Of a stretch of DNA of 64,000 nt, positions 17,140 through 33,087 are shown one piece after another. The DNA comes from a virus. Both the position numbers and the translations under genes were made by a program. Location of the stretch: positions 18,418 to 82,417 of the IMG/VR virus record IMGVR_UViG_3300036860_000542; one strand, given 5' to 3'. A model generated the notes under the pieces. The model did no database searches, was not told the origin of the DNA, and saw only the letters and a list, made by a program, of their open reading frames with translations. Within the stretch, counting starts at the first letter, position 1. Each line of letters opens with the position of its first letter.

Positions 17140-17466
17140 TTATCGGGAACGCTTGCCGAGAAAGTAGCCAAGAGCGCCCACAGCCACCATGGCGATAACG
17201 TTCATGGGGTCTTCGAGGATTCCGTCGAGTCCCTTCAAGCCCTTCGGCAGCTTCGAGTCGGCGATCTTCTTGACGCACCGCTTGAGCTTCTTGGAGTAGA
17301 TGAAACCGACCGGACACGGATCCTTCGGCGGATCAGGCTCCACCAGGAGGATGCGCTCCGCTCCCCACTGCGGTCCCCAGGTGGGGTACTGGATCGGGAA
17401 GGGGTACGGGTAGAATCCTCCGCCCCGCCGATGATGCCAACCAAGTCCGGTGCGTCCCATGTTCAT
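17140..17466 (-). CDS. virion-type membrane protein, C-terminal helix
   Basis: 108 residues from ATG 17466 (TGATG overlap). An aromatic/Pro/Gly-rich N-terminus (FYPYPFPIQYPTW), a soluble segment with KKLKRCVKKI, then one membrane helix (NVIAMVAVGALGYFL) ending GKRSR. The C-terminal-helix-plus-basic-tail plan recurs in at least ten proteins downstream. Confidence 0.55.
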   Translation of the reverse strand: MNMGRTGLGWHHRRGGGFYPYPFPIQYPTWGPQWGAERILLVEPDPPKDPCPVGFIYSKKLKRCVKKIADSKLPKGLKGLDGILEDPMNVIAMVAVGALGYFLGKRSR

Positions 17467-17753
17467 CATCCTTTCAGGAGACCGTACCCAACACCAGCAA
17501 GACCCACCAGACGCGCTGTCTTGCGCTCCATGCCGAGGAGACAGGCCACACCCATCGCGAGGAGCCCGAACTGCACAGCGGGCACCACAGAGCCCCAGGC
17601 GCCCAATCCGTCGGCGTTGCCGACGTACTGGAGCTGGGTGACGCCGCCCGTGTGGAACTTCCCGCTCAGCGGCGCCGGTGCCTCGGGCTTGCAGCACGGC
17701 TTGCCGACGTAGCAGTTGTTGCAGCACTTCTTCTTGGCGCCCTTGTGCTTCAT
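17466..17753 (-). CDS. membrane protein with Cys-rich N-terminus
   Basis: 95 residues from ATG 17753 (ATGA overlap). KKKCCNNCYVGKPCC forms a dense Cys cluster at 8-22; two hydrophobic helices follow (AVQFGLLAMGVACLLG and LVGLAGVGYGLL). Part of the putative virion membrane set. Confidence 0.55.
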   Translation of the reverse strand: MKHKGAKKKCCNNCYVGKPCCKPEAPAPLSGKFHTGGVTQLQYVGNADGLGAWGSVVPAVQFGLLAMGVACLLGMERKTARLVGLAGVGYGLLKG

Positions 17754-18214
17754 CTGCCACCTCCGCACTCACAGAAATACCGAGACTTTCCGCATACTTG
17801 GCAGCGACCGTTCTTGCGAGTCGCGAGCTCGAGAGTGCTTCCACACCGCTTGCAGTGTCCGATCTCGAAGCGCTCCTCGTCGTCCTCACGACGACCGCCT
17901 GGGTGCGTCTCGGTTCGGAAGAGGCTGGGATCCGACTTGAGTCGCTCGTGGTAGGCGACGGGACAACTCTCCTGGCTGAACTTGTGGGTGGCGCGCTTGC
18001 GGCGCACGTGGACGGTGGTGGCACCACCCTTCGGATCGGTGACGACCTCGAAGCCAGCCGGCCCTGCAGCCTTGGTGAGCTCCTTCAGGAGGGCGTAGGA
18101 CGTGTTATCGTCGGCGTCGAACTGCATGGTCTCGACGCCCAGAGCTGTGAGTGTGTCGTAGACGAAGGCTTCAGCAGCGCTGCCTTCGGGAACGACCGCG
18201 TAGGCTCGAGTCAC
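17750..18214 (-). CDS. hypothetical protein with C-terminal zinc ribbon
   Basis: 154 residues from GTG 18214, fixed by a GTGA overlap with the upstream stop. The first 80 residues look like an alpha/beta domain; the end holds CKRC, CQVC and CEC, enough for one zinc ribbon plus an extra Cys pair. The longer reading to 18412 is rejected. Confidence 0.6.
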   Translation of the reverse strand: MTRAYAVVPEGSAAEAFVYDTLTALGVETMQFDADDNTSYALLKELTKAAGPAGFEVVTDPKGGATTVHVRRKRATHKFSQESCPVAYHERLKSDPSLFRTETHPGGRREDDEERFEIGHCKRCGSTLELATRKNGRCQVCGKSRYFCECGGGR

Positions 18215-18630
18215 ACGTCCCTCGCGATGTTCTTCTCGATTGCGACTCGCCACCGGCAGAGACCAAGACCGAACTCCTGGCGCCTCCCTTCCGGTAGCTC
18301 CCAAGTGCATTCGAACGGCTCGACGGAGAGCTCGCCGGTTTCCGGCTTCCAATCCATGTCCTTGCGCTCCTGGCGCACGTAGAGGGCGTGCGGGGCACCG
18401 GGCATGGAGCACTTCGGGCAGATGAGGTGGAGGACGAAACGTCCATCCGTCAAGTAGAGGTCGGACTCGATCACCCGGTCACGCCAGCGGATGAGCGGGT
18501 GACCGATAGCCGACTTCGTCATGTCGATGGACGACTGGATACCGTGCTGTGCCGACTCCCCGGACGGATCGGGGACGTCACCAGCAATGTGGTAGAGGGA
18601 TTCGCGTTGAGGGTCGAAGGCAGTGCTCAT
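18211..18630 (-). CDS. hypothetical protein, 139 residues
   Basis: ATG 18630 lies just after an ATGTACACC element, with AGGA 8 nt upstream; an in-frame ATG at 18639 is inside the element. Residues 70-80 include LICPKC and the sequence ends IARDV. No family recognised. Confidence 0.55.
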   Translation of the reverse strand: MSTAFDPQRESLYHIAGDVPDPSGESAQHGIQSSIDMTKSAIGHPLIRWRDRVIESDLYLTDGRFVLHLICPKCSMPGAPHALYVRQERKDMDWKPETGELSVEPFECTWELPEGRRQEFGLGLCRWRVAIEKNIARDV

Positions 18631-18650
18631 GGTGTACATCCTACCAGGAG

Positions 18651-18947
18651 CTACTTCCTCTTGCCACCACGCCTCTTCAGGAGGTAGATCCCACCGATCA
18701 CTGCCACTCCGCCCAAGATCCATGGCAGGTAGCTGGGGGACTCCTGGATCGTGACCGGCGCCGCAGCCTGCCCCTTCCCGAAGACGGAAGCGATCGCGTC
18801 GAAGCCGGACTTGATGGTCCCGCCCCAGTCTGTCTTCGCGGTGGTCGCAGCGGCCGGCTTCGGGGTCACGCTGCCAAGAATCCCACCGGTGATGCTTCCA
18901 GTGAGGGCCGGCGTCGCACCCATCCCGGTCTTGATGTACTGGCTCAT
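18651..18947 (-). CDS. MSQY-family membrane protein 1
   Basis: 98 residues. Begins MSQYIKTG, has an Ala/Thr/Gly-rich middle and one C-terminal membrane helix (YLPWILGGVAVIGGIYLLKRR) with a basic GGKRK tail. It is the third member of a tandem trio sharing MSQY at the start and the helix-KRR end. I infer an integral virion membrane protein. Confidence 0.6.
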   Translation of the reverse strand: MSQYIKTGMGATPALTGSITGGILGSVTPKPAAATTAKTDWGGTIKSGFDAIASVFGKGQAAAPVTIQESPSYLPWILGGVAVIGGIYLLKRRGGKRK

Positions 18948-19189
18948 TTCTTTCCTCCAGCCGCCTTGCGGCGACGCTTCAAGAAGTAGGCGCCGCCGAC
19001 GAGCGCGACGGCACCAAGCAGGTACCACTTGTACGTGTCCAAGAAACCGCCCGAAGGCGCGGCGGCGGCAGCGGCAGCGCGTTCGGCAGCTCGCTTGGCG
19101 GACACGCAGCGTTCCACGCCACCGGACCTACGATGAAGTTGTCCAGGACCGCAGGTCAAACCGAGACCGATGGGAACGTACTGGCTCAT
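18944..19189 (-). CDS. MSQY-family membrane protein 2
   Basis: 81 residues. MSQYVPIGLG start, an Ala-rich helix around 32-45, then TYKWYLLGAVALVGGAYFLKRRRK. The helix is nearly identical in pattern to that of the next paralogue (YKWYLLG...GG..YLKRR), so duplication is recent or conserved by function. Overlaps both neighbours by 4 nt. Confidence 0.62.
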   Translation of the reverse strand: MSQYVPIGLGLTCGPGQLHRRSGGVERCVSAKRAAERAAAAAAAPSGGFLDTYKWYLLGAVALVGGAYFLKRRRKAAGGKK

Positions 19190-19428
19190 CGCTTTCTGCC
19201 CTTCTTGCGTCCTCGGCGCTTGAGATAGATGACTCCGCCTGCAAGCGCCATGGTACCCAGCAGGTACCACTTGTACTTGGAGACGAAGCCTTCCTGCACC
19301 GGAGTGACCGTGGTTCCTGTTGGTCCTGTGCTCACCTTGACGCCGGCTTTGGCCAGCTGGGTGCTCAAGGTGGGAATCATCCTCGAGAAGACGCCAGGAA
19401 CCGCACCAACTGCGATGTACTGGCTCAT
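19186..19428 (-). CDS. MSQY-family membrane protein 3
   Basis: 80 residues. MSQYIAVGAV start, helix at 54-70 (WYLLGTMALAGGVIYL) and a 10-residue Lys/Arg tail. The N-terminal half shares little with its paralogues apart from MSQY, pointing to divergence outside the anchor. Confidence 0.62.
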   Translation of the reverse strand: MSQYIAVGAVPGVFSRMIPTLSTQLAKAGVKVSTGPTGTTVTPVQEGFVSKYKWYLLGTMALAGGVIYLKRRGRKKGRKR

Positions 19429-20471
19429 GACCGCCTCCGTAGGAAGAGGAAGTAGATGGCCGCCGCGCCACCGGCGTAGAGGGCCCACTTCGGCACCTTG
19501 CTCAGCATGCCGGCCGCTGCGGCTGCAGGGAGTTCAGGAGCGGCCGGGGCCGGCCCGGCATCCTCTTCGCCTTCCTCTGGGGGAGCATCAGGGCTCCACG
19601 GGCCGCTGGGACCACCGCCTCCACCACCCCCGCCACCGGCGTAGGCTTCCGGCGGAAGAGGCATGGATGGACCCGGTACGATCGGCGTGAGACTCGAGAC
19701 CGGTCCTGGAGGCGACTGCACGAGCGGTTGCGCCGTCGTGGCGGATGCGAACGACTTGGTGGAGAGCGTCGCGAGCGTCGGCTTGACCAACGACCCGGTC
19801 TTGGGCAAGGAAATCGTCCGCGACGGAGCGGCCAGCTTCTCGGTGATCTGCTTGAACCAACCCTTGTGAAGGCCGCGATTGCCCGGCGCCGTCTTGGTGC
19901 CGAGTACGCGCTTCACCTTCTTCTTGGCAGCAGCACGCTGCGCAGCAGTGGGTACGAGCGGCATGGCTTTCTTGACCTCCGTCTGTTTCACAACCGCGGG
20001 CGCCGGGGCCTTCACCGGAAGGAGTACCGGGGCCGTCACAGCGGCCACGGGAAAAGTGGGGACGGTGGCCTTCGTCACAGGTGTGAGCGAAGAGACCGGC
20101 CCCGCCGGCATGGGAGCGATCAAACTTGGAGCCGCAACTCGCGTCGGCGCTGGGGCTGGCGTCGTCGAGATCGGAGCGAGTGCAGAGACGAGGCTTGGCA
20201 GAGGTGTCGCCACCGATCGGATCGGAGCGGCTGATACGACGAGCGGCTTCACCGACACCGGTGGGATGACCATCGGCTTCGCGGCCGTGGCACGAGCCAC
20301 AGCAGACACTGGGGCGGCCTTGGAGACCGCAATCGGAGCCGCCTTGGGCACAGGCTTCGGGGCGGGCTTGGGCGCAGGTCTCGCCACCGCCACCACCTTC
20401 TTGACGGCGGCCACGATCGGCTTGGGGGCCGTCACCGACAGGGTGAGGCCAAGGCTGCGTCTGTACGACAT
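19425..20471 (-). CDS. long Pro/Ala-rich protein with C-terminal membrane anchor
   Basis: 348 residues. Residues 14-170 are Ala/Pro/Val/Lys low complexity (repeated APKP and APVSAVARA-like runs), then a basic segment, a run of nine Gly near 290, an acidic PEEGEEDAG stretch and a membrane helix at about 324-343 ending RRRS. The shape suggests a flexible stalk or linker tethered to a membrane, for example a spike base or spanning scaffold. Starts MSY, like the next gene. Confidence 0.55.
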   Translation of the reverse strand: MSYRRSLGLTLSVTAPKPIVAAVKKVVAVARPAPKPAPKPVPKAAPIAVSKAAPVSAVARATAAKPMVIPPVSVKPLVVSAAPIRSVATPLPSLVSALAPISTTPAPAPTRVAAPSLIAPMPAGPVSSLTPVTKATVPTFPVAAVTAPVLLPVKAPAPAVVKQTEVKKAMPLVPTAAQRAAAKKKVKRVLGTKTAPGNRGLHKGWFKQITEKLAAPSRTISLPKTGSLVKPTLATLSTKSFASATTAQPLVQSPPGPVSSLTPIVPGPSMPLPPEAYAGGGGGGGGGPSGPWSPDAPPEEGEEDAGPAPAAPELPAAAAAGMLSKVPKWALYAGGAAAIYFLFLRRRS

Positions 20472-20812
20472 CAGCGCTTCCCCAGGGAGTACCCGATGAA
20501 GAAGGGGATACCCAGAACGGCGAGCGCGGCGACCGGCGCGACCCACTTGTGCTGCAGGGCGTACTTGTACGCCTTCAGGGGCGCCACCGCGTACTTGAGG
20601 CCGATACCAGCAGGCTTGGCGCCGCCAGGTTTGGCTGGCGGCTGCAGCGCGTTGATGTCCATGATGAGCCCCGTCACCTTGGGGAGTGCTGGGTCATCAA
20701 GGATCGCGGACGTGGCCTGCACAACTCCGCCCACCTTGCCGGCGTACTCGGCCACCGCGCCAGCGAGTGCTTGGCGGCGAGCTCTGCTCCGGTTGCGGTT
20801 GACGTAGCTCAT
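20471..20812 (-). CDS. membrane protein, virion block
   Basis: 113 residues. Arg-rich N-terminus (NRNRSRARRQ), a soluble middle, and a C-terminal helix VAPVAALAVLGIPFFIGYSLGKR. ATG overlaps nothing upstream; a 108-nt gap follows on its 5' side. Its stop overlaps the next ATG as TGATG. Confidence 0.55.
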   Translation of the reverse strand: MSYVNRNRSRARRQALAGAVAEYAGKVGGVVQATSAILDDPALPKVTGLIMDINALQPPAKPGGAKPAGIGLKYAVAPLKAYKYALQHKWVAPVAALAVLGIPFFIGYSLGKR

Positions 20813-20882
20813 CAGATCCTCAAGTAGCCCGTCGATCTTCGTCTCCGTCCCTGAACACGTCTCCGGTAGTTCGTGCAGGGTA

Positions 20883-20896
20883 GGCCTCGCGAGGCC
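20883..20896. promoter_or_regulatory. GGCCTCGCGAGGCC palindrome in gap
   Basis: Perfect 14-bp palindrome in the 108-nt gap between two membrane-protein genes; could be a hairpin in the leader or a protein site. Confidence 0.3.
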
Positions 20897-20920
20897 GACG
20901 GGCTAGTTCAAGAGCCGATG

Positions 20921-21540: not shown

Positions 21541-22155
21541 CTACATGTTGACGATGCGGTAGCCAGGCAGCGCGACCACGAGCTGGCCCTGCGTCGGCGG
21601 CGTCGAGCCGCTGAACGTGATGGCCTCGTAGGTCGGGGTGACGGCGATCGTCGTGTTCGGGGTGAACAGCGACGGCACCGGCAGCGGGATGACGTTCTCC
21701 GGCTGCGAGAGCAGTCCACCAGGAACCGGGGACGACTGGAAGTTGCGCTGCGACCCGGTGTCGATGAACTGGTAGCTGATGTCGATGAAGTCGGCCGCGA
21801 TGGTCTGCGTGGGGAGCTGCGCCGAGCACACCGGCCGCCACCGACCGAAGTTGGTGGCGCTGGAGGGCAGCGTCGGCTTCCACAGGATCATCGGGTAGTG
21901 GGTCATGATGAACGGGCCGTCCTGGGAGACCAGCATCTGGGCTGGGTTCCCCTGGCGACCGTTCACCGTGATGTCGAACAGCACGGTGCCGACGAGGGTA
22001 TAGAAGAGACGACGACCAGGGATGGCGTCGATCTCCTCCTGGACGGTGCGCGGCTTCTTGGCCGCCTCCTTCAGGATGTCCATCTCCTGTCGGAGACGCA
22101 TGATCTCCTGCTTGAAGGGGGCGAGGGCCTGTCTGAGGGCTGCGTTGTCGGACAT
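21541..22155 (-). CDS. candidate capsid protein A (beta-rich)
   Basis: 204 residues from ATG 22155, with GGGAG 8 nt upstream. Residues 5-38 form a charged helix (RLRQEMDILKEAAKK); the remainder is strand-rich (FYTLVGTVLFDITVNG, GPFIMTHYPMILW, IDISYQFIDTGS, IAVTPTYEAITF). Its size, lack of motifs and setting beside another small beta-rich protein fit a single-jelly-roll capsid protein as in P23-77-like phages. This is inference from composition and context; another virion shell or vertex protein is equally possible. Confidence 0.45.
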   Translation of the reverse strand: MSDNAALRQALAPFKQEIMRLRQEMDILKEAAKKPRTVQEEIDAIPGRRLFYTLVGTVLFDITVNGRQGNPAQMLVSQDGPFIMTHYPMILWKPTLPSSATNFGRWRPVCSAQLPTQTIAADFIDISYQFIDTGSQRNFQSSPVPGGLLSQPENVIPLPVPSLFTPNTTIAVTPTYEAITFSGSTPPTQGQLVVALPGYRIVNM

Positions 22156-22296: not shown

Positions 22297-22875
22297 CTAC
22301 TGGACGTCGCGGGTCTGGAGGCCGTCGATGACGAACATGATCACCTTCTCGTCATCGGTGGCGCCCGTGTTCAGGTTCACCAGGGCGTCGGTGGAGCCCA
22401 CGGTGAAGAACTGGCACTGGACCGCGAAGTTCTGGCGGACCGGCACCATGATGGGCCGCGCCAGCTTCAGGATCGCCTCGTGGGTCGGATCGCCGAGGTT
22501 GAAGATGGACGTGGTGTCGTCCACCGAACCCCAGACGCCGCCGCCCGACGGGTAGTACCAGCACGGCGCCTGGAAGGCCGGCTTGTCACCCAGCGACAGG
22601 GTGAAGTAGAGCTGCGAAGCCACCCGCAGGTAGTTCGCACGACGGTTGGTGCCGTTGAAGTACAGCCAGCACCGCAGGGCCAGGATGACGTAGGTCTGAT
22701 CGGACGCGAGCTGGCCGGCGACCTGGAGGTTCGTGAGGTCCAGGCGGCCGATGTTCGCGTTGCCGAACAGCACCGTGGTCTGCTGGACCACCGGCGAGGG
22801 GGTGCCGGTGGTGCGGATGATGGTGTCCCAGAACGGCTGGTGACGACGTTCCTTGACTCCGTGAAGACGAGGCAT
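22297..22875 (-). CDS. candidate capsid protein B (beta-rich)
   Basis: 192 residues. Strand-rich throughout: TTVLFGNANIGRLDL, TYVILALRCWLYFNG, ASQLYFTLSLG, FAVQCQFFTVG, KVIMFVIDG. No enzymatic motif. It is flanked by strong hairpins on both sides, which suggests a separately expressed abundant product. With protein A it could make a two-component jelly-roll shell. The assignment depends on fold prediction that I cannot run. Confidence 0.48.
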   Translation of the reverse strand: MPRLHGVKERRHQPFWDTIIRTTGTPSPVVQQTTVLFGNANIGRLDLTNLQVAGQLASDQTYVILALRCWLYFNGTNRRANYLRVASQLYFTLSLGDKPAFQAPCWYYPSGGGVWGSVDDTTSIFNLGDPTHEAILKLARPIMVPVRQNFAVQCQFFTVGSTDALVNLNTGATDDEKVIMFVIDGLQTRDVQ

Positions 22876-23048: not shown

Positions 23049-24464
23049 CTAGTAGCCCCAGCCCCAGCCGCCGAAGATGCCGGCGTACAGGGAGTCGAGC
23101 TTGTCGGCGGCCGGCGTCCACTGGGGGACCGTTCGGACCATCGACCTGGAGGGCACAGGGGCCAGCATGCGGGCCGTGGGGACCGGGGCGACCATGGCAG
23201 GAGCACCGGCGGCGCCGAGCTCCTCGTAGGCACCGGTCTCCATGTACTCGCCGAGCTCCTCTTCGGCGCCCGTCTCGACGTACTCGCCCGTCTCGACGTA
23301 CTCGCCCATGTCCTGCTGGAAGGCGCCGAGGGCCTCGTCGTACACGCCCTCCGCCGCGCCCAGGGCAGCCTGGACCGACAGCGGGGCGTACGCCTTGATG
23401 AGGGCCTCGATCAGGTTCACGCCCAGGCCGATCATGATCGGCGAGTGGTACCGGGACAGGAACCGGACCTTCTTGGTGGCGATGCTGCCCAGGACCACCA
23501 TGCCGGCATGGAGGACAGGACCAGCGTGGTTGCCCAGCTTGTCCGCCACCATGCCGCCCAGGCGGCTCACGATCAGCCGGCCACCGACCATGGCGCCGAC
23601 TACCGGAAGGGCAGCCTTGGCCACGGTCATGAGCCCGCCGAGCGGGTTCTTGCGGAGGCGGAAGCCCCGCAGGATGCCACCACGACGCCGGCCATGACGG
23701 CGCCGACGCGGGTTGTGACGCCGACGCCGACGGCGACGGGGATTCGCCAGCACGGGGGCGAAGGCATTGCGGCGACGACGCCGAGCGTGACGACGCCGAC
23801 GAGGATTCCGACGAGCCTTGCGACGCCGACGCTTCCGGCGCGGGTTCATCAACGGCTCACCCGCTGTGAAGTGCCGACCACCGGCGTACTTCTTCCGCCG
23901 GGTCCGCCACGCCTTCTTGGCCGCACGACGCCGACGCGCCTTCCCGTAGCTCTTCCGGCGCACCTTGCCACGGCGGGCCTTCCGACGCTTGCGGAAGCCC
24001 TTGGGTCCGTACTTCTTCCGCCGGGTCCGCCACGCCTTGAGGGCGGCGCGACGGCGCTTGCTCGACTTCCTCTTCTTCGCCATCGGGGTTCTCCTTCTCT
24101 TGGGCCGTCGCGCCTTCCGGCGCGGGTTGGTGTACAACAGGGCCGCGTTGCGGCGGCGACGCCTCCGGCGCGGGTTGGCCAGCGCCGTCATGTGGGGGTT
24201 CTTGCGGCGGCGCCGAGCCTTGCCGAACTTCTTGTTGTGGGCCCGCCAGTAGCGCTTGAGGCCGATCGGCATCTTGCGCGAGATCTTCACAGGACCCTTC
24301 GGACGGCGCGCCTTGGAGCGCTTCCGCTTCGGGTTCAGGCGGGACGCCCGAACAGCAGCGAGGCCGCCGCGGGCAGTGGAAGCAGTTCGACGGGCCTTGA
24401 TGAGGCCGAGCTTTCGCCGGAGGGCTGCGGTTCTTCCAGGAGGATTGACGAACCAGGTTGGCAT
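23049..24464 (-). CDS. protamine-like Arg/Lys protein fused to membrane domain
   Basis: 471 residues. Residues 10-275 are dominated by Arg and Lys, punctuated by Asn-Pro pairs before Arg/Lys runs (at 44, 89, 97, 113, 207, 220, 241, 251, 273) and a duplicated KAWRTRRKKY (143-152 and 184-193). Residues 278-365 hold hydrophobic helices (VAKAALPVVGAMVGG, GPVLHAGMVVLGSIAT, SPIMIGLGVNLIEALIKAY). An acidic tract with EYVETG-type repeats follows at 387-410, then a Pro-rich, aromatic end. I infer a genome-condensing protein that ties DNA to a membrane, functionally comparable to adenovirus core proteins. It has its own promoter, leader hairpin and terminator. Unlike its neighbours it is unusually rich in CGN codons. 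Confidence 0.6.
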   Translation of the reverse strand: MPTWFVNPPGRTAALRRKLGLIKARRTASTARGGLAAVRASRLNPKRKRSKARRPKGPVKISRKMPIGLKRYWRAHNKKFGKARRRRKNPHMTALANPRRRRRRRNAALLYTNPRRKARRPKRRRTPMAKKRKSSKRRRAALKAWRTRRKKYGPKGFRKRRKARRGKVRRKSYGKARRRRAAKKAWRTRRKKYAGGRHFTAGEPLMNPRRKRRRRKARRNPRRRRHARRRRRNAFAPVLANPRRRRRRRHNPRRRRHGRRRGGILRGFRLRKNPLGGLMTVAKAALPVVGAMVGGRLIVSRLGGMVADKLGNHAGPVLHAGMVVLGSIATKKVRFLSRYHSPIMIGLGVNLIEALIKAYAPLSVQAALGAAEGVYDEALGAFQQDMGEYVETGEYVETGAEEELGEYMETGAYEELGAAGAPAMVAPVPTARMLAPVPSRSMVRTVPQWTPAADKLDSLYAGIFGGWGWGY

Positions 24465-24592: not shown

Positions 24593-25021
24593 TCATCTAC
24601 GCCTGGGGGAGGATAGAGCGGAATCCAGCTTAGATTCCAAGCGGTTAAGAGATTCGAGAATCGACCGAAGTCGTACCTCCTGCTCCGCTTTGGATACCTC
24701 GAGCGTCTTCACACGCTCGTCGAGGGTCTTCTGCATGGCGGTGTACTCCGCCCTCGCGCTCACGAAGCTCTCCGCGTCGGGGTACTTCCCGAGACGGAAC
24801 ACCGTCACCGCGATCGGCACACCCATGGTGATGACGAAGGCGCACACCCACGATGCCACCTTCGCGATCGACGGACGAAGCATGTTCTCGATCCACGAGA
24901 ACTTCGTATTGCCCTGGTTGAGGCTGTTCTTCACCTCTTCCTTGAAGTGCGCGAAGGTGTGCTCAATGACGAGCATGCGATCGCGCAGCTCCTTGAACTC
25001 TTCGGCTTCCTGTGGAGTCAT
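24593..25021 (-). CDS. coiled-coil / membrane / coiled-coil protein
   Basis: 142 residues from ATG 25021 (ATGA overlap). A charged helix (EAEEFKELRDRMLVIE...), one membrane helix (VASWVCAFVITMGVPIAVTVF) near residues 54-75, and a second long charged helix to the end (TLDERVKTLEVSKAEQEVRLRS). Resembles phage proteins that oligomerise on a membrane; no family named. Confidence 0.6.
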   Translation of the reverse strand: MTPQEAEEFKELRDRMLVIEHTFAHFKEEVKNSLNQGNTKFSWIENMLRPSIAKVASWVCAFVITMGVPIAVTVFRLGKYPDAESFVSARAEYTAMQKTLDERVKTLEVSKAEQEVRLRSILESLNRLESKLDSALSSPRRR

Positions 25022-25728
25022 CCGGTTATGCCTTCCGGTCTCACGTCCAGCATCCCGCCCCACAACGCGGCCTCGAGCCTCGCTCGAGGTCCCTTCACGT
25101 CGATGATGAGCAGGGCGCGACCGGAAGGAACAGCGTAGAGCTCAGGATACGGTCGCGCCTCTGCATCAGACTTCCTGCCGGCGGCGTTCTTGTACTGGAA
25201 GCCGAGACACAGGCCGAGCAGGTAGAGGCTCTCCACCTTCTTCAGCCAACTAGGAACCTCTTCCAGCGGACCCTCATCGATCATGGAGTCCGTTGGCACG
25301 TACACACCCACTCCGGCCTCGTGCTCGTGGATGTAGTCGTTGAACTTCGACTCCCACTTGTCGGAGCGATAGAGGATGTGGTAGGCATCGCCGATGTACA
25401 TGAGCTCCGAAGGCATCTGAAAGCCTTCCAGAATGCCGAACTCCTGGGGATCGAACTTGGTGAAGCGCTTGTAACCCTTCACCGCGTCCATGAAGTCGGG
25501 GGGAGGTTCAGGTGGGTTCTTTTGTGGACGCTCGCCCAACTTGCGAAACATGTCCTCTTTCGAGAAACCCAGGTATCCGTGCATGTGATGCTTGCCCATG
25601 CCAGCGTCGGCATCAAACCAGGCGTTGCTCTGTCGATCAAAGTAGACCGTCGCGATGGTGTTGCCATCGTCGTCAACCACCAGTTGATTGCCGGTGTCCG
25701 CGTAGTCCTTGGCACGTTTCAACTTCAC
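25018..25728 (-). CDS. hypothetical protein, 236 residues
   Basis: Soluble alpha/beta sequence opening MKLKRAKDYADTGNQLVVDDDG, with HHMHG near 47 and a hydrophobic SLYLLGLCLGF near 168. No motif recognised. Sandwiched by 4-nt overlaps between a phosphatase-like gene and a coiled-coil membrane protein. An ATGTACAT copy at 25394-25401 is intragenic. Confidence 0.55.
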   Translation of the reverse strand: MKLKRAKDYADTGNQLVVDDDGNTIATVYFDRQSNAWFDADAGMGKHHMHGYLGFSKEDMFRKLGERPQKNPPEPPPDFMDAVKGYKRFTKFDPQEFGILEGFQMPSELMYIGDAYHILYRSDKWESKFNDYIHEHEAGVGVYVPTDSMIDEGPLEEVPSWLKKVESLYLLGLCLGFQYKNAAGRKSDAEARPYPELYAVPSGRALLIIDVKGPRARLEAALWGGMLDVRPEGITG

Positions 25729-26147
25729 CGAATCGCCTCCAACGTCTCGACGAAGTGGCGGTTGGAGAGCGCGCTATCTCCACGCAGAGATCGGATTCTG
25801 GAGACGACGGTTCGAGCACTCATACCCATGATCCGCATCGCCATGGCAGCCACCCAGGCGGAACGGTTGCGGCCCGCAAAACAGGTGACGAGAACCTTCT
25901 TGCCCCTCTCCAACGCATCCGCCACCACGACCGCAGTGCGAAGCGCCCACGCACGCTCCGTCAAGGTGGGCTTGGCGTCGTCAAGGCCTACGTAGACGAG
26001 GTTCTGTCCGGTCTCTGGGAATCGAGGTTGGTACTCAAGGGCAGTGAAGACGATCATATCGAAGCCCTTCGGAAGAACCATGGGAGCCGAACCGATGAAT
26101 AGGTTCGGATACACCTCAGTTCTGTCTGCGAGCTCCTTCATGTTCAT
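25725..26147 (-). CDS. dual-specificity phosphatase-like protein
   Basis: 140 residues from ATG 26147, fixed by the ATGA overlap. VLVTCFAGRNRSAW carries the CX5R(S/T) loop: C89 as nucleophile, R95 binding phosphate and S96. LDDAK at 55-59 could supply the general acid. These enzymes remove phosphate from Tyr/Ser/Thr or from phosphoinositides and RNA caps. A phosphatase in the middle of a virion-protein operon is unusual; it may be packaged or may act on host proteins. A TTGCG-N3-CGCAA palindrome covers the codons before the catalytic loop. Confidence 0.78.
   Translation of the reverse strand: MNMKELADRTEVYPNLFIGSAPMVLPKGFDMIVFTALEYQPRFPETGQNLVYVGLDDAKPTLTERAWALRTAVVVADALERGKKVLVTCFAGRNRSAWVAAMAMRIMGMSARTVVSRIRSLRGDSALSNRHFVETLEAIR
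25867..25879. repeat. TTGCG-N3-CGCAA palindrome 5
   Basis: TTGCGGCCCGCAA inside the phosphatase-like gene, overlapping its catalytic-loop codons. Confidence 0.8.
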
Positions 26148-26617: not shown

Positions 26618-27592
26618 CTACCTCCGCTTCTTCTTGGGCTTGAAGATGAAGAAGGCCGCGACGCCGATGCCGGCGGCGGCGACCATGCCGTACCCGGACG
26701 TGAGGAAGTTCATGATGCCGCTTCCCAGGAGCGACGTGCCGGCGCTACCCGCGTCGGGCGACATCGATGACACGAGGCTCTGCACGGAGGCCACCGCCTG
26801 GCCCGCGGTGCCAAGGTACTTCCTGATTATGATGGCCGTCTTGTCGGCCGAGGCCGCCACGACGAACGGACGCTGGTACTTCTCCCAGGCGATGTAGACA
26901 CCCTGGAGATGGTTCGCCTCATCCGTGGTGAGCTTACGATTGTAGCGATCCAAGAATAGCTCCTTGGCCCTCCGCGCTGCGGCAGCCGCCGTCTTCGGGC
27001 CGATCTTCCCATCGATCGCCACGCCGAGGACCGTCTGGAGCTGCTTGAACTTGGTGGTCACGGCTGGGCTCTTGCCGAAGCAATACTCCGCGCTGCCACC
27101 GCCCACACAATCGATCGACGTGCTGGGGATCGTATAGATGATGGCGGCGTCGAGCGGAGACACTGAAGCACCAAGGCTGATCGGCTCGCCGATCGCTGTG
27201 CGCTGCGTCTGCTTCCAGTTGATCTGCTTCATCGGCTTCAGGTTCCACCGCTTGTTGCGGCGGCAGAGCTTGTAGATATGCATCCACGGAACCGCCGGCC
27301 AGTTGCGGCCCGCAACCTGAGCGATGGCAGACTGAGTCGCCGCGTTCATGAGGCCGTTTCTCGGGACGTTGAAGCCGAGCTCGTTGAGGCACTTCTGGAT
27401 GCCTTGCACGACCACCATGACCGGCTGCGAGGACGGATCGCTCTCCCCAGGCGTGAGGAAGAGAGTCGGGACCGCCATGCTGGCCAGATACGGTCGCACG
27501 CCCATGTCGGCGATGATCTGCCGAACGTCGAGCGGGCCGATCGGGAACTCAGGCGCTTCGGCTTCGCCGTTCTTCTTCTCTTCCTTTGCCAT
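26618..27592 (-). CDS. membrane protein with peptidoglycan-binding-like repeats
   Basis: 324 residues from ATG 27592. Segments 60-95 (VQGIQKCLNELGFNVPRNGLMNAATQSAI) and 180-208 (FKQLQTVLGVAIDGKIGPKTAAA) each show the helix/DG-x-GPxT pattern of PG_binding_1. A C-terminal membrane helix lies at 299-318, followed by KPKKKRR. In a membrane-containing virion such a protein could dock at the cell wall during entry or carry a lytic partner. Two further Cys pairs lie in the middle. Confidence 0.65.
   Translation of the reverse strand: MAKEEKKNGEAEAPEFPIGPLDVRQIIADMGVRPYLASMAVPTLFLTPGESDPSSQPVMVVVQGIQKCLNELGFNVPRNGLMNAATQSAIAQVAGRNWPAVPWMHIYKLCRRNKRWNLKPMKQINWKQTQRTAIGEPISLGASVSPLDAAIIYTIPSTSIDCVGGGSAEYCFGKSPAVTTKFKQLQTVLGVAIDGKIGPKTAAAAARRAKELFLDRYNRKLTTDEANHLQGVYIAWEKYQRPFVVAASADKTAIIIRKYLGTAGQAVASVQSLVSSMSPDAGSAGTSLLGSGIMNFLTSGYGMVAAAGIGVAAFFIFKPKKKRR
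27303..27315. repeat. TTGCG-N3-CGCAA palindrome 6
   Basis: TTGCGGCCCGCAA, 15 bp with flanks, inside the peptidoglycan-binding-like gene; it has the same spacer as palindrome 5. Confidence 0.8.
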
Positions 27593-27594: not shown

Positions 27595-28227
27595 TCAATC
27601 TCTCCTTCGAGTCACCAGGTGCGTGACGTAGAACGCGCCAAGACCGATGCCGGCCCACTTCATCCAAGTGGGCACGCTGGGTAGGAGCCACCAGGCGGCC
27701 TTGAATGGCGCCTTGACGATCGCCTGCGCCACGTCGTGCGCGGCTTCAGCAACCGCTTCTCCGAACATCGTGTACGCTCGCGGTGCCAAGAAGATCCCGC
27801 CGGACCGGAGCACAAGCTGTTCGGTGGACTTCCAGAAGCTCACCGCCAAGCTCTCCGGCAGAATCGAGTTGCCGTAGGCGTTCGCGAGCGCGGTGTTGAT
27901 CCAACCAGTCTCCGACTGCCAGGCGGGGTACTCGCGCTTCCACGCGATACGGCCGGCGGAAGTGAGCAGCGGTGCTGCCACTCCGAATAGGAGGGCATTG
28001 AAGGCCTCATCGTTGTTCACGCGCTTGTTGACTTGCGTGAACGGCTCCTCCCAGAAGTTCTTCAGCTTCAACCATTGCGTGCCCGAGAGGTTGGGGTATC
28101 GAATGTCCGTCCGACCGGGAAGGAAGACGGAAGTCTCTCCCCAGACACGCCTCGCCTCGTTCTTCTGAGCAGCGAGCATGCCCACGAAGTCGCGGTAGTT
28201 GACGGTCTGGACGGTGAAGTTCGCCAT
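27595..28227 (-). CDS. virion-block membrane protein, 210 residues
   Basis: MANFTVQTVNYRDF start, a long amphipathic middle, and hydrophobic helices from about residue 165 (AAWWLLPSVPTWMKWAGIGLGAFYVTHLV) ending TRRRD. Ends 2 nt from the next start. No family recognised. Confidence 0.58.
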   Translation of the reverse strand: MANFTVQTVNYRDFVGMLAAQKNEARRVWGETSVFLPGRTDIRYPNLSGTQWLKLKNFWEEPFTQVNKRVNNDEAFNALLFGVAAPLLTSAGRIAWKREYPAWQSETGWINTALANAYGNSILPESLAVSFWKSTEQLVLRSGGIFLAPRAYTMFGEAVAEAAHDVAQAIVKAPFKAAWWLLPSVPTWMKWAGIGLGAFYVTHLVTRRRD

Positions 28228-28235: not shown

Positions 28236-29363
28236 TCACTTCAACAGGATGACAGCAAGGAGGATGGCGCCCCCGCCGATGGCCACCGGGATGATGGGAA
28301 AGCCACCGCCGGTAGAGCCAGCATCGCCAGGCGTCGGAGCGCAAAGACCTTGCGCCACGTCGGCGCCGGTCGAACCAGCCTGCGCGCCCTGTGGTCCACC
28401 AGCCGCCGCGCCGCCCGCCATCGCGCCGAGCTTGAGAAGGCCGCTGTTGGCGATCTTGCACGCCACCTTCCCGACCTTGTCGAGCGCGTTCTTCGCCTTG
28501 TCGGCGACCTTGCTGGCCGTCCCGGGGAAGGTGAGCGCAAGAGACGCCCCACCAGTAGCAGGAGCGAGGATGACGCCTGCTCCCTTCTTGGCGTAGCTCT
28601 TCACGGAGCTCCACAGGCCACCGAGACCATCAGCCCCAGCGCAGCACGCACCGAGACCCATGAGGCCGCTGGTGGGCGCCTTGCCCGTCTTGCCCATCTC
28701 CATGAGCTGGTCGAGCGTGTGGTTGGCAACGACGACGGTGATGGCCTTCAGGAGCGCCGTCTTCGCGTCGTACTTCTTCGCCTTCATCAGCAACTCGGCC
28801 TTGGACTCCACCGCGGCCGGGAAGCTCGAGTCGATGTTCCCAAGCACCGCCTGGAGGAAGATCTTCCTCTCGATCGGTGTCCTGAACTGGCGGGCATCGG
28901 CCATCAGCATGCCGGCGATCTGCTTGGCGAGCTGCGCCACGCCATCACGACCGCCGCCCGGAGCGTCGGCAAGCGCGCCGAGCGAGCTCCGACCAGCGAG
29001 CGTCGGGTTCGACAAGGTGCCGTACTTGCCCGCGCTCTTGTTCTCGTCGAAGATTCCGACGCCGACGCGCTCGGTGTGCTCACGCGCCGTGACGATCTCC
29101 GGGATGAGACCGAAGATCGTCCCGCGCTTCGTGTAGTGGGTGGTTCGCACGCCCTGGCCGAGCGGTTCGTCACGGACCGACTGCGGAAGGATGTACGGAG
29201 GCCAACCGCCTGGGTTCCGCGGGTTGCGCAGGCCCTGAACGTCGATCGTCTTCCTCTTGCGGTACTTCGAGACGATAGCGCCTCGACGGAACGGCTCGTC
29301 GATGACGTTCTGCGGGATCGCGTACCCGGCGATGTAAGGAGATCCGCGTCTCAGAAGAGCCAT
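28236..29363 (-). CDS. virion-block protein with C-terminal membrane helix
   Basis: 375 residues from ATG 29363. N-terminal half contains two related-looking pieces (YIAGYAIPQNVIDEPFRRG and YILPQSVRDEPLGQG), suggesting an internal repeat. The middle is helical; the C-terminal third is Gly/Ala-rich with Cys pairs, and the last 20 residues form a membrane helix (IIPVAIGGGAILLAVILL). Probably a structural membrane protein. Confidence 0.58.
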   Translation of the reverse strand: MALLRRGSPYIAGYAIPQNVIDEPFRRGAIVSKYRKRKTIDVQGLRNPRNPGGWPPYILPQSVRDEPLGQGVRTTHYTKRGTIFGLIPEIVTAREHTERVGVGIFDENKSAGKYGTLSNPTLAGRSSLGALADAPGGGRDGVAQLAKQIAGMLMADARQFRTPIERKIFLQAVLGNIDSSFPAAVESKAELLMKAKKYDAKTALLKAITVVVANHTLDQLMEMGKTGKAPTSGLMGLGACCAGADGLGGLWSSVKSYAKKGAGVILAPATGGASLALTFPGTASKVADKAKNALDKVGKVACKIANSGLLKLGAMAGGAAAGGPQGAQAGSTGADVAQGLCAPTPGDAGSTGGGFPIIPVAIGGGAILLAVILLK

Positions 29364-29364
29364 G

Positions 29365-29886
29365 TCACTTTCTCCTTTTGGACTTGCGAGCTGCAACCTC
29401 AAGATAGCGGATCATCCGACGCAACGTGTTCACGTTGTCGTCGATCAGACCAAGAGCCATGTTGCAGATGTGGCAGAGTAACCCGCGTACCGCGCCTGTT
29501 TTATGATCGTGATCGATCGGCCACTTGTGATGATCTCTCCACGGACCACGAGTCTCTTTCGAGCCGCAAATGGCGCAGGCGTGACCCTGTCTCTGTAGCA
29601 TGCGATTGTATTCAGCATCCGTAAGACCGAACTTTCTTAGCCTTCGGGCAGCCGAACGTAGGACTTTTGTCTCCGGCGACTTTTCGTATGCGCGCCTTTC
29701 AGCTAGGTACTTTTTCCAAGCTGCAGGATCTTCTTTCTTCAGCTTCTGCTTCCAGCGCTTGATGCGTTCTCGCGCCTTCCTTTTACACTCTTCATACCAA
29801 GCAGGGTCCTCTTCGGCTTTCTTTCGATGCCAAAGGGTGGACGCGCTCTTTCCGCCCCGATCCTTCATGTACATAGTATAGCTCAT
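29365..29886 (-). CDS. endonuclease VII-like HNH protein
   Basis: 173 residues from ATG 29886 (ATGA overlap); an ATGTACATG at 29866-29874 offers in-frame later starts. The N-terminal 85 residues are a basic helix. The nuclease core has zinc Cys pairs C104/C107 and C138/C141 around DHDH at 125-128, then GLLCHICNMALGL, matching recombination endonuclease VII. Family role: cleavage of branched DNA, or homing. A second, divergent copy lies at 47.1 kb. Confidence 0.88.
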   Translation of the reverse strand: MSYTMYMKDRGGKSASTLWHRKKAEEDPAWYEECKRKARERIKRWKQKLKKEDPAAWKKYLAERRAYEKSPETKVLRSAARRLRKFGLTDAEYNRMLQRQGHACAICGSKETRGPWRDHHKWPIDHDHKTGAVRGLLCHICNMALGLIDDNVNTLRRMIRYLEVAARKSKRRK

Positions 29887-30440
29887 GCCACCGGCCACAC
29901 CTTGGCCGCGACGACGCGCCTGAGCATCTTCCTCGTGTCGGGACCCGCTACGGGGTCGCAGACAATCCACGTTCCACTCTTCGGCTCTCGAGCCTCACAG
30001 AAGACGTGGCTGTACTGGCGTTCCTTCTTGTAGAACATGTGCCGGAATGCGCAAGTCACCACCCTCACTTCGCATCCAACGGCAAGGCACAACGCCCCGA
30101 TGAGCGCTGCCATGTCGTCGCAGTCGAGGTTCGGAATCTGGCCGGTCTTCATCTGGTTGCACACCACGTAAGGCGCCTTGACAAGCTCGATGGTACGCGG
30201 ATCGCGCATGTAGCGCGTGTGCGCGGAGACGAAGTTGTTGACGGCCAAGATCTCGGAGAGATAGTCCTTCGTGCGCAGACCCTGGCAGATGTCCTCAGCG
30301 AGCTGGCGCACGCACGAGTGGTTCTGCGACTCGAGCATTCCGCGGGCGATGAAGGCGACGCTATGCGGCGCCCCACGGTAGTCGAGCTTCAGAACCCTGT
30401 CATCACCAAGTCCCCACGGCACGTAGGGGACACTTTCCAC
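29883..30440 (-). CDS. transglutaminase-like cysteine protein
   Basis: 185 residues from GTG 30440. The papain-like triad can be read: C107 in NLDCDDMAA, H145 in YSHVFCEA and D162 in VCDPVAG, with correct spacing for the transglutaminase-like superfamily. Phage members are of uncertain function, possibly proteases or crosslinking enzymes acting on virion proteins. First gene of its transcription unit, behind a good promoter. Confidence 0.78.
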   Translation of the reverse strand: MESVPYVPWGLGDDRVLKLDYRGAPHSVAFIARGMLESQNHSCVRQLAEDICQGLRTKDYLSEILAVNNFVSAHTRYMRDPRTIELVKAPYVVCNQMKTGQIPNLDCDDMAALIGALCLAVGCEVRVVTCAFRHMFYKKERQYSHVFCEAREPKSGTWIVCDPVAGPDTRKMLRRVVAAKVWPVA

Positions 30441-30467
30441 CGGAGAAGTCGTGGACTTACACCTGAG

Positions 30468-30497
30468 AATATACAGGACCAGGGCCTAGGGGTGCAA
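30468..30497 (-). promoter_or_regulatory. sigma70-like promoter of the transglutaminase-led unit
   Basis: TTGCAC (30492-30497), 18-nt spacer, TATATT (30468-30473) on the minus strand, in the 61-nt gap upstream of GTG 30440. Confidence 0.55.
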
Positions 30498-30501
30498 CTT
30501 G

Positions 30502-32142
30502 CTACTCGACGGGCGGGGATTCCGTGGGGACTTCAGGGGCTTCCGCAGGCGGCGCTTCGTCTTCGGTCATGCCGAGCATGGCCGCAACGCACTTCCTCAG
30601 CCAGTTCCGACCGCGCTGCGAGTACAGGATCGACCCGTCCGGCGGGTTGGCGGCCTGAATGAAGGCGTCCGGTCCCATTTGCCGGAGAGCGGAGATGATC
30701 TCCGTGGGCACCATCGAGCGTGCCGAGACGGCGAAGGCCATCGGATCTGTCCCATTGGTGATGGCCTGCTCGACGAACTGCATCGCCGCCGCGACCTCCA
30801 TCGGGTTCAACTCGATGACGTGACCCTGAGAAGGCGCTTGCGGCTTCGGCTTGCGAGTCGAAACCACTGCGGTCTCGCCCTGTGCTGCGGCACGCGCTGC
30901 TTGCGCCGCTCTCTTCCGCTTCAGCACCTCCGGGTTCACCTGAGGAGGAGCAGCGGGCGGGGCGTTCTCGACTCGAGACGCCACAGCCTGTGCCATCGGG
31001 CTCTGCATCACGGTCTGCAGCACACGCTCCCAAGTGGAAGCCGGCTCCTGTTCGCCAGGACCGAGGATCTCGAGAGCATTCTTGAGCTGCGCCACCTGCT
31101 CGACGGCGTCGAGAGGACCCTTCTCCTTGATGTCGCGCAGCTTCGCGCACTCGGTCTTCGACTCGGCGAGCTGCCTCTCGAGGTCGGCGACCCGACCCTT
31201 GAAGCCGTCGAGCCGGGCCTCGTAGCTCTGCTCGACGGACTTCAACGCCTGGCCATGCGTCTCGCGCAGCATGCTGATCTCACGATCGTGCGAGCGATCG
31301 CGTCTCTCGAGCTCCGCTTGAAGGCGAGTGCGCTCCGCTTCGACGTCATGGCGATTGTTCTCTCGGAGGGTACGCAGCTCCGAGTCGAACTGAGCCCGCA
31401 GTGCATCGATGCGCCCGGACTCGCCCGCCACCAGGTGCTCGAACGTCTTCTCGATCACCGACGGTGTGGACGGTGTCTTGTTGGCGTTCGTGATGAGGTT
31501 GAGGATCTGGGCATCCTTCTCCGCCATCTGCCGACGCATCTCCATCATCTCTTGCTGCAGCATCTTGACGGCCGGCGGATCGAAGGCGAGCTTCATGAGC
31601 TCCGCATCGCCTCCGCCCTTCTTGCGGTTCTCGTCCTCGAGCTCCCAGGCTCTCTTCTGGCTGAGCTCTGCGGCGCGGGCCATGTGGTCGAGGGCCTTGC
31701 CCTGCAGGGCGACATCGTCACCGTCCTTGAGCATGGTCTTGGGGGCACCGGGCGTCTCGGCAAGCAGCGCACCACTCAGCCGCGGATCACCTTCGATCTC
31801 GAACGACTTCGCACCCGCGTAGGTCCAACCGCCCTTCGGGTTCGGTCGGAACGTCTTCACCTGGTACTTGCCGCCACCGAAGCGCTGCTTGATGTCTTTC
31901 TCGTCGAAGGGCTCGTCGTACTCCTCCAGGAAGCCGGCGATGTGGTGGCCTTGCCACTCACGAGGGTATTTCCTCTCGAGCTTGATCTTGAGCGCACCCG
32001 AGGTGCCGAGCTCCTGGAGCCACTCGAAGATGGACTTGTCCTCCGCCTGCGCGATCGTCTGCGCGGACATGGACACGTCCTCCTTCTGCTTGCCCTTGAG
32101 CGGCGTCACAGGTGCGACGTCATCGTAGGTCTGTTCACTCAT
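30502..32142 (-). CDS. large coiled-coil protein
   Basis: 546 residues from ATG 32142, which overlaps the upstream stop by 8 nt; the longer frame is rejected. A compact N-terminal domain (about 38-125, with FEWLQELG, the GGGKYQVKTF strand and FEIEGDPRLS) precedes a long heptad-rich region from about 150 to 370. A Pro/Ala linker and an alpha-helical C-terminal domain with acidic end follow. It could be a scaffold or internal virion protein. The N-terminal domain looked familiar but I cannot name it. Confidence 0.6.
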   Translation of the reverse strand: MSEQTYDDVAPVTPLKGKQKEDVSMSAQTIAQAEDKSIFEWLQELGTSGALKIKLERKYPREWQGHHIAGFLEEYDEPFDEKDIKQRFGGGKYQVKTFRPNPKGGWTYAGAKSFEIEGDPRLSGALLAETPGAPKTMLKDGDDVALQGKALDHMARAAELSQKRAWELEDENRKKGGGDAELMKLAFDPPAVKMLQQEMMEMRRQMAEKDAQILNLITNANKTPSTPSVIEKTFEHLVAGESGRIDALRAQFDSELRTLRENNRHDVEAERTRLQAELERRDRSHDREISMLRETHGQALKSVEQSYEARLDGFKGRVADLERQLAESKTECAKLRDIKEKGPLDAVEQVAQLKNALEILGPGEQEPASTWERVLQTVMQSPMAQAVASRVENAPPAAPPQVNPEVLKRKRAAQAARAAAQGETAVVSTRKPKPQAPSQGHVIELNPMEVAAAMQFVEQAITNGTDPMAFAVSARSMVPTEIISALRQMGPDAFIQAANPPDGSILYSQRGRNWLRKCVAAMLGMTEDEAPPAEAPEVPTESPPVE

Positions 32143-32647
32143 CGGAATCTCCTTCGGGTTCGTCGTTGGATTCCTCGACGGCCTCATCCGCATCACCCTC
32201 GGGGTCTCCAGCTTCCTCGCTCTCATCCGAGGTCGTATGCTCCTCGACGGCCTCCGCCGTGAGCTCGAACGCGGTGAGGTACGCGGCGGCCTGGCCCTGC
32301 AGACGCTTGGCCGTGGTGTCATCGAGAGGGACGCCGGCCTTCATCTTGGCGACCTCGTCCGCGATGACCTTCCCCAGCTCGAGGGTAGCCAGGATCTGAT
32401 CAGCGAGCTCGGGTTGGATCAGACTGTCGGACCCATCGATGAGAGCGTCCATCGCCTGCTCGAGACGCACGATGCGAGCTCCGAAGTGATCCGCCATCGT
32501 CTGCATGAGCGGGTAGGCGTTGTCACGGAACTCGTTCTTCGCCTCGATGAACTTGGCCTTGGAGACGCGCTGCTCCGCTTTCGCCAAGTCCTCCATCAGG
32601 AAGGCATGCTCCTCTTGTCCTTCGGTGGTGTCTTCCGGCTTGTCCAT
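32135..32647 (-). CDS. acidic helical protein
   Basis: 170 residues from ATG 32647 (TGATG overlap). Helical body (EDLAKAEQRVSKAKFIEAKNE...) and a C-terminal 35-residue run rich in Glu/Asp. Sitting just upstream of the coiled-coil protein, it may be a chaperone or scaffolding partner. Such acidic tails can also mask basic DNA-binding proteins; this is conjecture. Confidence 0.55.
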   Translation of the reverse strand: MDKPEDTTEGQEEHAFLMEDLAKAEQRVSKAKFIEAKNEFRDNAYPLMQTMADHFGARIVRLEQAMDALIDGSDSLIQPELADQILATLELGKVIADEVAKMKAGVPLDDTTAKRLQGQAAAYLTAFELTAEAVEEHTTSDESEEAGDPEGDADEAVEESNDEPEGDSDE

Positions 32648-33087
32648 CACTTCTTCTCCTTCTTGCGAGGCGCCAGGTAACGCTGGCGAGCGTGTTCACG
32701 ATTCGCGATGTCCATAGGGTCCATGGGGACCCACTCGGAGCATTCGAAGACGCAGTCATCGGTGAGGTCGAGCTCCACACCAGGGATGACCTTGCAGATG
32801 CGGTTGATCTGCCTTGGCGCCCGATCGAGGCCTCTCGACTCCACCTCCGCGAAGGAGTGGATCTCGATGTAGTGACGACAGGGACCACGTAGGCAAACGA
32901 AGTTGTCCGGGCTGGCCTTCGGAAGCGGTTCGGGTCTCCCAAGGTACCCGACCATGTTCGGGCCGCCGTCCTTCGCCGGAGGCGGCGCCGGGTCCGGTTC
33001 CACGTCCTTCCAGGGGTCGAGCTCCTTTCGCTTCTCGTCGTCGAGCTTGTCGCCGTCTTTACCCACCTGCCGGTTGCCGATCTTCAT
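32647..33087 (-). CDS. hypothetical protein with four-Cys motif
   Basis: 146 residues; CGGAG precedes ATG 33087. Charged Pro-rich first half; second half has CLRGPCRHY, NRICKVIPG and FECSEWVP, four Cys spaced like a metal or Fe-S site. First gene of the minus-strand block, bordering the non-coding kilobase. Confidence 0.58.
   Translation of the reverse strand: MKIGNRQVGKDGDKLDDEKRKELDPWKDVEPDPAPPPAKDGGPNMVGYLGRPEPLPKASPDNFVCLRGPCRHYIEIHSFAEVESRGLDRAPRQINRICKVIPGVELDLTDDCVFECSEWVPMDPMDIANREHARQRYLAPRKKEKK

What the first reader, a model, noticed from the sequence alone, without database searches (positions are those of the whole stretch)
17140..33087. Virion block suggests a large tailless phage with an internal membrane
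At least a dozen consecutive proteins carry one C-terminal helix with a basic tail, beside a DNA-condensing membrane protein and two small beta-rich shell candidates. I see no terminase, portal, tape-measure, sheath or tube gene anywhere in 64 kb. Known membrane phages of the PRD1/PM2/P23-77 kind are about 10-20 kb, so a relative with more than 60 kb would be a new group. A head-tail phage with its packaging module outside the window is the alternative.
Basis: inference. Interest (0 to 1): 0.86.

Follow-up and report, generated by a model that had tools for sequence, protein, structure and literature searches.

The report
Large tailless membrane phage, complete genome
This window is most of a complete 82-kb circular virus genome that seems to build its particle from small jelly-roll shell proteins and many membrane-anchored proteins instead of a head and tail; it belongs to a previously unrecognised group, reaching 138 kb, whose nearest known relative is the odd tailless phage SSIP-1, and no DNA-packaging motor shared by the group could be found.

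Summary
The finding holds up, with corrections. The contig (82,417 bp) ends in an exact 127-bp repeat, and one helicase gene reads through the junction, so it is a closed 82,290-bp circle. The 18.4 kb outside the window hold replication genes, not a packaging or tail module. Nineteen related contigs were found; 11 carry end repeats of 32-141 bp (68-138 kb). Among the ~70-90 kb members a virion block keeps one gene order. Only g72 (22297-22875) occurs in all 20 genomes. AlphaFold models g72 and its neighbour g71 as jelly rolls; fold matches include SPV1, HHIV-2 and P23-77 capsid proteins. Three structural genes are homologous to structural genes of SSIP-1, a cultured tailless phage with an internal membrane (43.8 kb). 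Terminase (18 records), portal (16) and FtsK-type ATPase (12) searches gave no hit, and no gene family in six or more genomes has a conserved P-loop. Best reading: large tailless icosahedral phages with an internal membrane, whose DNA is condensed by an arginine-rich membrane protein beside the capsid gene. Particle shape, lipid and motor-free packaging remain predictions.

The parts
22297..22875 (-). g72, major capsid protein candidate, 192 aa, single jelly roll
   Evidence: The only gene family in all 20 genomes; AF2 pLDDT 74, pTM 0.69; fold matches include SPV1 capsid protein 6oj0_Z prob 1.00, TM 0.43-0.45, and viral model I1ZBH9, 211 aa, TM 0.52
21541..22155 (-). g71, second capsid protein candidate, 204 aa: N-terminal helix plus jelly roll
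   Evidence: AF2 pLDDT 74, pTM 0.63; weak PDB matches include P23-77 VP17, SPV1 and HHIV-2; always next to g72 where found
23049..24464 (-). g73, arginine-rich protein with C-terminal membrane domain; DNA condensation at the membrane proposed
   Evidence: 124 K/R and 1 D/E in 273 N-terminal residues; basic N-terminus conserved in relatives
1..427 (+). g29, homologue of the g73 membrane domain (gene starts 262 bases before the window)
   Evidence: g73 profile hits g29, and a second copy in most genomes of the ~70-90 kb group
29883..30440 (-). g83, transglutaminase-like protein
   Evidence: Pfam Transglut_core 3.5e-6; SSIP-1 structural protein gp34, hmmsearch 2.2e-21, hhalign prob 98.4
30502..32142 (-). 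g84, 546-aa coiled-coil protein, scaffold or internal protein proposed
   Evidence: next to g83 in the relatives that have it; hhalign to SSIP-1 gp33, which sits beside gp34, prob 53 (coiled-coil caveat)
25018..25728 (-). g75, conserved block protein
   Evidence: matches part of SSIP-1 structural protein gp43, 7.5e-6
26618..27592 (-). g79, peptidoglycan-binding-like protein with C-terminal membrane helix and tail KPKKKRR
   Evidence: Pfam PG_binding_3 1.1e-4, PG_binding_1 5.6e-4, both just below cut-off; helix
28236..29363 (-). g81, 375 aa, C-terminal membrane helix
26144..26613 (-). g77 and g78, small proteins with C-terminal membrane helix
   Evidence: g77 family in 15 genomes; helices
17140..21532 (-). 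g61-g70, small proteins, several with a C-terminal or near C-terminal membrane helix and basic tail
27595..28227 (-). g80, C-terminal membrane helix by eye, ends RRRD
32135..33087 (-). g85-g86, soluble block proteins
   Evidence: shared with G003
49006..49407 (+). g121, protein conserved in the ~70-90 kb group, beta-rich by eye
   Evidence: 11 genomes
50297..50917 (+). g123, M23 peptidase with C-terminal membrane helix and tail RRK: virion wall-opening enzyme proposed
   Evidence: Pfam 1.4e-24; helix
50919..53493 (+). g124-g126, three spike candidates sharing an N-terminal domain
   Evidence: g126 family matches SSIP-1 gp48, hmmsearch 9.3e-8, hhalign prob 80.6
54572..57262 (+). g129-g130, SGNH hydrolase and a long beta protein that by eye resembles a spike depolymerase: polysaccharide-degrading spike candidates
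   Evidence: Lipase_GDSL_2 2.5e-8; g130 has no functional family

Best explanation
A complete, circular 82.3-kb genome of a tailless icosahedral bacterial virus with an internal membrane, one of a group of large relatives of SSIP-1. Proposed working: g72, with g71, forms a shell of single jelly-roll capsomers (fold predicted). Under it lies a host-derived lipid layer carrying about a dozen small proteins, each anchored by one C-terminal helix with a basic tail (sequence shown, location and orientation inferred). The arginine-rich membrane protein g73, with g29, condenses the DNA against that membrane, so that core, membrane and shell co-assemble without an ATP-driven motor (inferred, by analogy with the small viruses SPV1 and FLiP). 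Spikes g124-g126, sharing a base domain with SSIP-1 gp48, and the SGNH hydrolase bind and cut host surface sugars; membrane-anchored wall enzymes (g123, g79) open the wall for DNA entry (inferred from domains).
For: Closed genome: 127-bp exact end repeat, 583-codon open frame across the junction. Block order g84-g83-g81-g79-g77-g75-g73-g72-g71-g70-g69-g64 kept in the ~70-90 kb relatives, with single families (such as g70) undetected in some. Jelly-roll models. Homology to three SSIP-1 proteins, gp34, gp43 and gp48, all annotated structural; the three best of 351 hhalign pairs are with gp34, gp48 and gp33. SSIP-1 is membrane-containing with two capsid protein types (PMC6356626, PMC4958249) and also has many C-terminal-helix proteins. 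No TerL in 18 records, portal in 16, FtsK in 12, with controls ringing.
Against: Models are of middling confidence (pLDDT 74) and fold matches modest (TM 0.3-0.5). Capsid proteins show no sequence link to SSIP-1 gp45/gp46. Transglutaminase domains occur in other phages (own knowledge). No lipid, particle or proteome data. SSIP-1 has an ATPase among its structural proteins (gp40) with no detected homologue here, so a diverged or host-supplied packaging enzyme remains possible.
Confidence: 0.85

Rival explanations
1. A head-tail phage with highly diverged terminase, portal, capsid and tail genes that profiles miss.
For: Profile searches cannot exclude extreme divergence; the genome sizes are typical of tailed phages; spike-like proteins and a phage-type integrase are present.
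Against: No TerL or portal match in any searched relative; several complete genomes have no convincing Walker A protein at all; no tape-measure-like or tail module; jelly-roll models of the two capsid candidates.
Confidence: 0.05
2. A tailless virus with an outer envelope (budding, pleomorphic) rather than an icosahedral shell over an internal membrane; g71/g72 would be surface or matrix proteins.
For: Many single-span membrane proteins, an arginine-rich membrane protein, no packaging motor found.
Against: Two adjacent jelly-roll proteins, one universal and the most conserved; spikes, wall enzymes and homology to SSIP-1 structural proteins fit an icosahedral internal-membrane virion.
Confidence: 0.07
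3. A tailless internal-membrane virus as above, but one that does use an ATP motor: each lineage uses a different, a diverged or a host ATPase. (This rival concerns the packaging step only; it is compatible with the rest of the best explanation.)
For: SSIP-1 gp40 is an ATPase annotated as structural; the window genome has its own P-loop proteins g11 and g142.
Against: g142 is absent from G001-G004 and no P-loop family is shared by six or more genomes; G007, G008 and G013 show no convincing Walker A protein.
Confidence: 0.4

Closest known systems
[quoted passage not shown]
   Same: Circular dsDNA; neighbouring coiled-coil and transglutaminase genes; two adjacent genes of capsid-protein size; many C-terminal-helix proteins; homologous gp34, gp48 and part of gp43.
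   Different: About half the size; carries ATPase gp40; capsid proteins not alignable by sequence; no arginine-rich g73-type protein found.
Portogloboviridae (SPV1)
   Same: Circular dsDNA, two single jelly-roll capsid proteins, internal lipid, DNA condensed by protein, no packaging ATPase (PMC8459092, PMC8812541); best TM among the listed PDB matches of g72.
   Different: Archaeal, about 20 kb; only a fold match seen; its condensing protein forms a nucleoprotein filament, whereas g73 carries a membrane domain.
Helvetiavirae (P23-77, SH1/HHIV-2)
   Same: Two vertical single jelly-roll capsid proteins, internal membrane.
   Different: FtsK-HerA ATPase present there (PMC8812541), not found here; smaller genomes (own knowledge).
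Tectiviridae / PM2 (double jelly-roll)
   Same: Tailless, internal membrane.
   Different: Capsid protein candidates here are one small jelly roll each; no FtsK-HerA ATPase found.

Membership tests
SSIP-1-like phages | Homologous structural genes | tested here: met
   gp34 2.2e-21, gp48 9.3e-8, gp43 7.5e-6
SSIP-1-like phages | Two adjacent single jelly-roll capsid genes | tested here: met
   Predicted folds only
SSIP-1-like phages | Capsid proteins homologous in sequence | tested here: not met
SSIP-1-like phages | ATPase gp40 | tested here: not met
   No blastp hit of gp40 in any of the 20 genomes
SSIP-1-like phages | Icosahedral tailless particle with internal lipid | not testable with these tools
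   needs particles
Caudoviricetes | Large terminase | tested here: not met
Caudoviricetes | Portal protein | tested here: not met
   PF04860
Caudoviricetes | HK97-fold capsid | tested here: not met
   No Pfam/PHROG capsid hit; g71/g72 modelled as jelly rolls
Helvetiavirae | FtsK-HerA packaging ATPase | tested here: not met
   PF01580; HerA-specific profiles were not run
Helvetiavirae | Two vertical single jelly-roll capsid proteins | tested here: inconclusive
   Weak structural match only
Portogloboviridae | Sequence homology to SPV1 genes | not tested
   SPV1 proteins were not compared one by one; only a fold match
Tectiviridae and other double jelly-roll viruses | Double jelly-roll capsid protein | tested here: not met
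   192 and 204 aa, modelled as one barrel each

The most novel reading that the evidence does not exclude
A widespread lineage of tailless internal-membrane bacterial viruses, with complete genomes of 68-138 kb, that packages dsDNA without any ATP motor by co-assembling membrane and shell around DNA condensed by an arginine-rich membrane protein, at genome sizes several times those of the motor-less viruses known to me (SPV1 about 20 kb, FLiP about 9 kb).
Probability: 0.45. Interest if true: 0.92.

Novelty: new variant of a known kind. Interest (0 to 1): 0.83.

Why it matters
Known tailless membrane phages are small; SSIP-1 at 43.8 kb has stood alone. Here its structural genes are tied to an unclassified group of at least 20 contigs, up to about 138 kb, larger than many tailed phages. 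It would show that a tailless, single jelly-roll architecture scales to large genomes in bacteria, and the lack of any shared packaging ATPase makes the question of whether large dsDNA genomes can be packaged without a motor directly testable. Searches for phages based on terminase, portal and tail genes would miss the whole group.

Tried and rejected
Megablast and tblastn of the block, g72, g71, g83, g75 and a distant g72 relative against 50,697 phage records: no match; g72 against plasmids: no match. Profile search of g72 and g71 against PDB sequences: nothing relevant. hhalign of g72/g71 against SSIP-1 capsid candidates: no signal. Whether I1ZBH9 is SSIP-1 gp46 rests only on equal length (211 aa); not verified. 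PHROG tape-measure and minor-head hits rejected: all from the M23 domain of g123. 'Phage_cement_2' hit rejected: weak, below cut-off, in g130. G010_27 P-loop protein read by eye as a nucleotide kinase, not a packaging enzyme. Search of 148 genomes of the class of the one bacterial bin with a relative: no other copy, so no host inferred. Rfam on the window, L002 and L017: nothing. First starts called for g73 in several relatives were too far downstream; in-frame extension restored the basic part. One all-against-all hhalign run timed out.
Full report
What the record is. The window lies at 18418-82417 of an 82,417-bp IMG/VR contig. I fetched the rest. The first 127 bases are repeated exactly at the end, and a helicase frame of 583 codons without a stop crosses the joined ends, so the map is a closed circle of 82,290 bp. 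Repeats of 123-127 bp in most of the closing contigs probably reflect assembler word length on a circle (inference). The 18.4 kb outside the window carry SNF2 helicase, AAA/PIF1-type helicase, a UDG-fused family A DNA polymerase, ribonucleotide reductase and ThyX: replication and nucleotide genes, no packaging or tail module.

Observation. I called 143 genes with a home-made caller; starts are approximate. The block 17140-33087 is on the minus strand and is enriched in proteins ending in one hydrophobic helix with a basic tail: 7 of 26 against 4 of 117 elsewhere, p=6e-4, shuffles mean 0.33; 6 of 26 against 3 of 117 with a second scale. Counting by eye gives about 13, interspersed rather than consecutive. 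g73 is extreme: 124 K/R and one acidic residue in its first 273 residues, then a membrane domain.

Relatives. g72 found 4, then 13 loci in IMG/VR and one contig in a 'Deltaproteobacteria' bin; g71 and a distant g72 found more, including 130-140 kb contigs. Twenty genomes or contigs, the window's included, were gene-called. End repeats of 32-141 bp occur in 11 relatives: G001, G002, G003, G005, G007, G008, G011, G013, G016, G017 and G019, 68.1 to 138.4 kb. G005's repeat is only 32 bp. Block order is the same throughout the ~70-90 kb group, with a family undetected here and there. The 130-140 kb group keeps g84, g83, g77, g72 and, in part, g75, g71 and g64 in the same order. In the third group (G010, G011, G012, G018) only g72 and, in three of the four, g83 are detected. 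Replication genes of the window genome are mostly not shared. g72 is the only family present in all 20 genomes.

Capsid. AlphaFold with 16 sequences models g72 as one jelly roll, pLDDT 74, pTM 0.69; g71 as a helix plus jelly roll, pLDDT 74, pTM 0.63. Foldseek hits of g72 are mostly viral jelly-roll capsids; the best TM in the PDB rows shown is SPV1 (0.43-0.45), and the best viral model is I1ZBH9 (TM 0.52), whose length equals SSIP-1 gp46 but whose identity I could not check. g71 hits, all weak, include P23-77 VP17 and the VP16-VP17 complex, SPV1 and HHIV-2.

SSIP-1. Reading its record and proteins shows a similar layout: coiled-coil gp33, transglutaminase gp34, small helix-ended proteins, membrane protein gp44, capsid candidates gp45/gp46, then gp48. 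Profiles confirm g83-gp34 (2.2e-21), g126-gp48 (9.3e-8) and g75-gp43 (7.5e-6); in hhalign the top three of 351 pairs are g83-gp34, g126-gp48 and g84-gp33. g84-gp33 is weak and both are coiled coils. Which SSIP-1 genes are the capsid genes is my inference from size, adjacency and annotation as structural; the literature says it has two capsid protein types (PMC6356626, PMC4958249); the original paper is not held.

Tail-phage genes. TerL profiles: phrog_2 in 18 records, PF03237 in 12, no hit. Portal PF04860 in 16, no hit. FtsK PF01580 in 12, no hit. Positive controls rang each time. G013 was not in these sets. Pfam and PHROG scans of window proteins gave no head-tail gene; PHROG was not run on the replication and small-gene sets, and Pfam on the A7 set used a strict 1e-5 limit.

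Packaging. A strict Walker A pattern finds no convincing NTPase in G007, G008 or G013, and only implausible matches in G005 and G006. No family in six or more genomes has a conserved P-loop. A pattern scan can miss deviant motifs. SPV1 and FLiP, both small, also lack packaging ATPases (PMC8812541); SPV1 condenses its circular DNA with protein inside a lipid layer under a shell of two single jelly-roll proteins (PMC8459092). By analogy I propose condensation by g73 (basic N-terminus kept in relatives). This step is inferred, not shown.

Entry. g123 (M23 peptidase with membrane tail), g79 (peptidoglycan-binding-like, sub-threshold) and a CHAP-like g134 (weak) are candidate wall enzymes; G008_15 and SSIP-1 gp54 have weak transglycosylase matches and membrane tails. 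g124-g126 share an N-terminal domain and vary behind it, like exchangeable spikes.

Literature. Eight searches of the held library found no description of such a group; subscription papers and preprints are mostly not held, so this is not proof of priority.

Verdict.

Noticed in passing
L017:6616-8073 (G003) and L056:855-2225 (G013): The g83 transglutaminase gene appears to be interrupted by an intein-like insert at its conserved Cys (IDC/LDC, resuming CDD); judged by eye from the translation.
   Followed up: partly
L017:14244-15672 (G003); L033:5573-6163 (G013): The g72 capsid gene looks split by an intron-like insert with a homing-endonuclease-type ORF in G003, and its N-terminal part is displaced at another site in G013. 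Rfam found no group I intron in L017.
   Followed up: partly
helix-ended proteins of all genomes, e.g. window 18651-18947: They often begin M[SATGP]Y or M[SATGP]QY (46 of 144 against 39 of 1602 others, p=2e-30) and carry a G[LM]G[DAES] motif upstream of the helix (22 seen, 5.4 expected): a possible targeting or maturation signal.
   Followed up: partly
window 23049-24464 and many basic proteins, also G011 44530-46494: Recurrent RRNP / NPRRRR motifs in basic proteins, most striking in the 109-kb G011.
   Followed up: no
L041:15552-16121, L041:17300-18349 and L042:10005-10769 (G011): Three g72 paralogues in one genome; several other genomes have a second, diverged copy (33 members in 20 genomes), perhaps pentamer or minor capsid proteins.
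   Followed up: partly
window 1315-7339, 10269-12205, 14612-16563: Cluster of glycosyltransferases, methyltransferases and NDP-sugar epimerase/dehydratase genes, perhaps for glycosylation of virion or host surface.
   Followed up: no
window 25725-26147: A dual-specificity phosphatase-like gene (g76) inside the virion block; its family occurs in 12 genomes, in most of them away from the block.
   Followed up: no
window 9206-10090: A tyrosine integrase (Pfam 4.5e-32), so integration may be possible.
   Followed up: no
window 43348-44280 and 47756-48163: ParB-like and DnaJ-like genes shared by 9-10 genomes.
   Followed up: no
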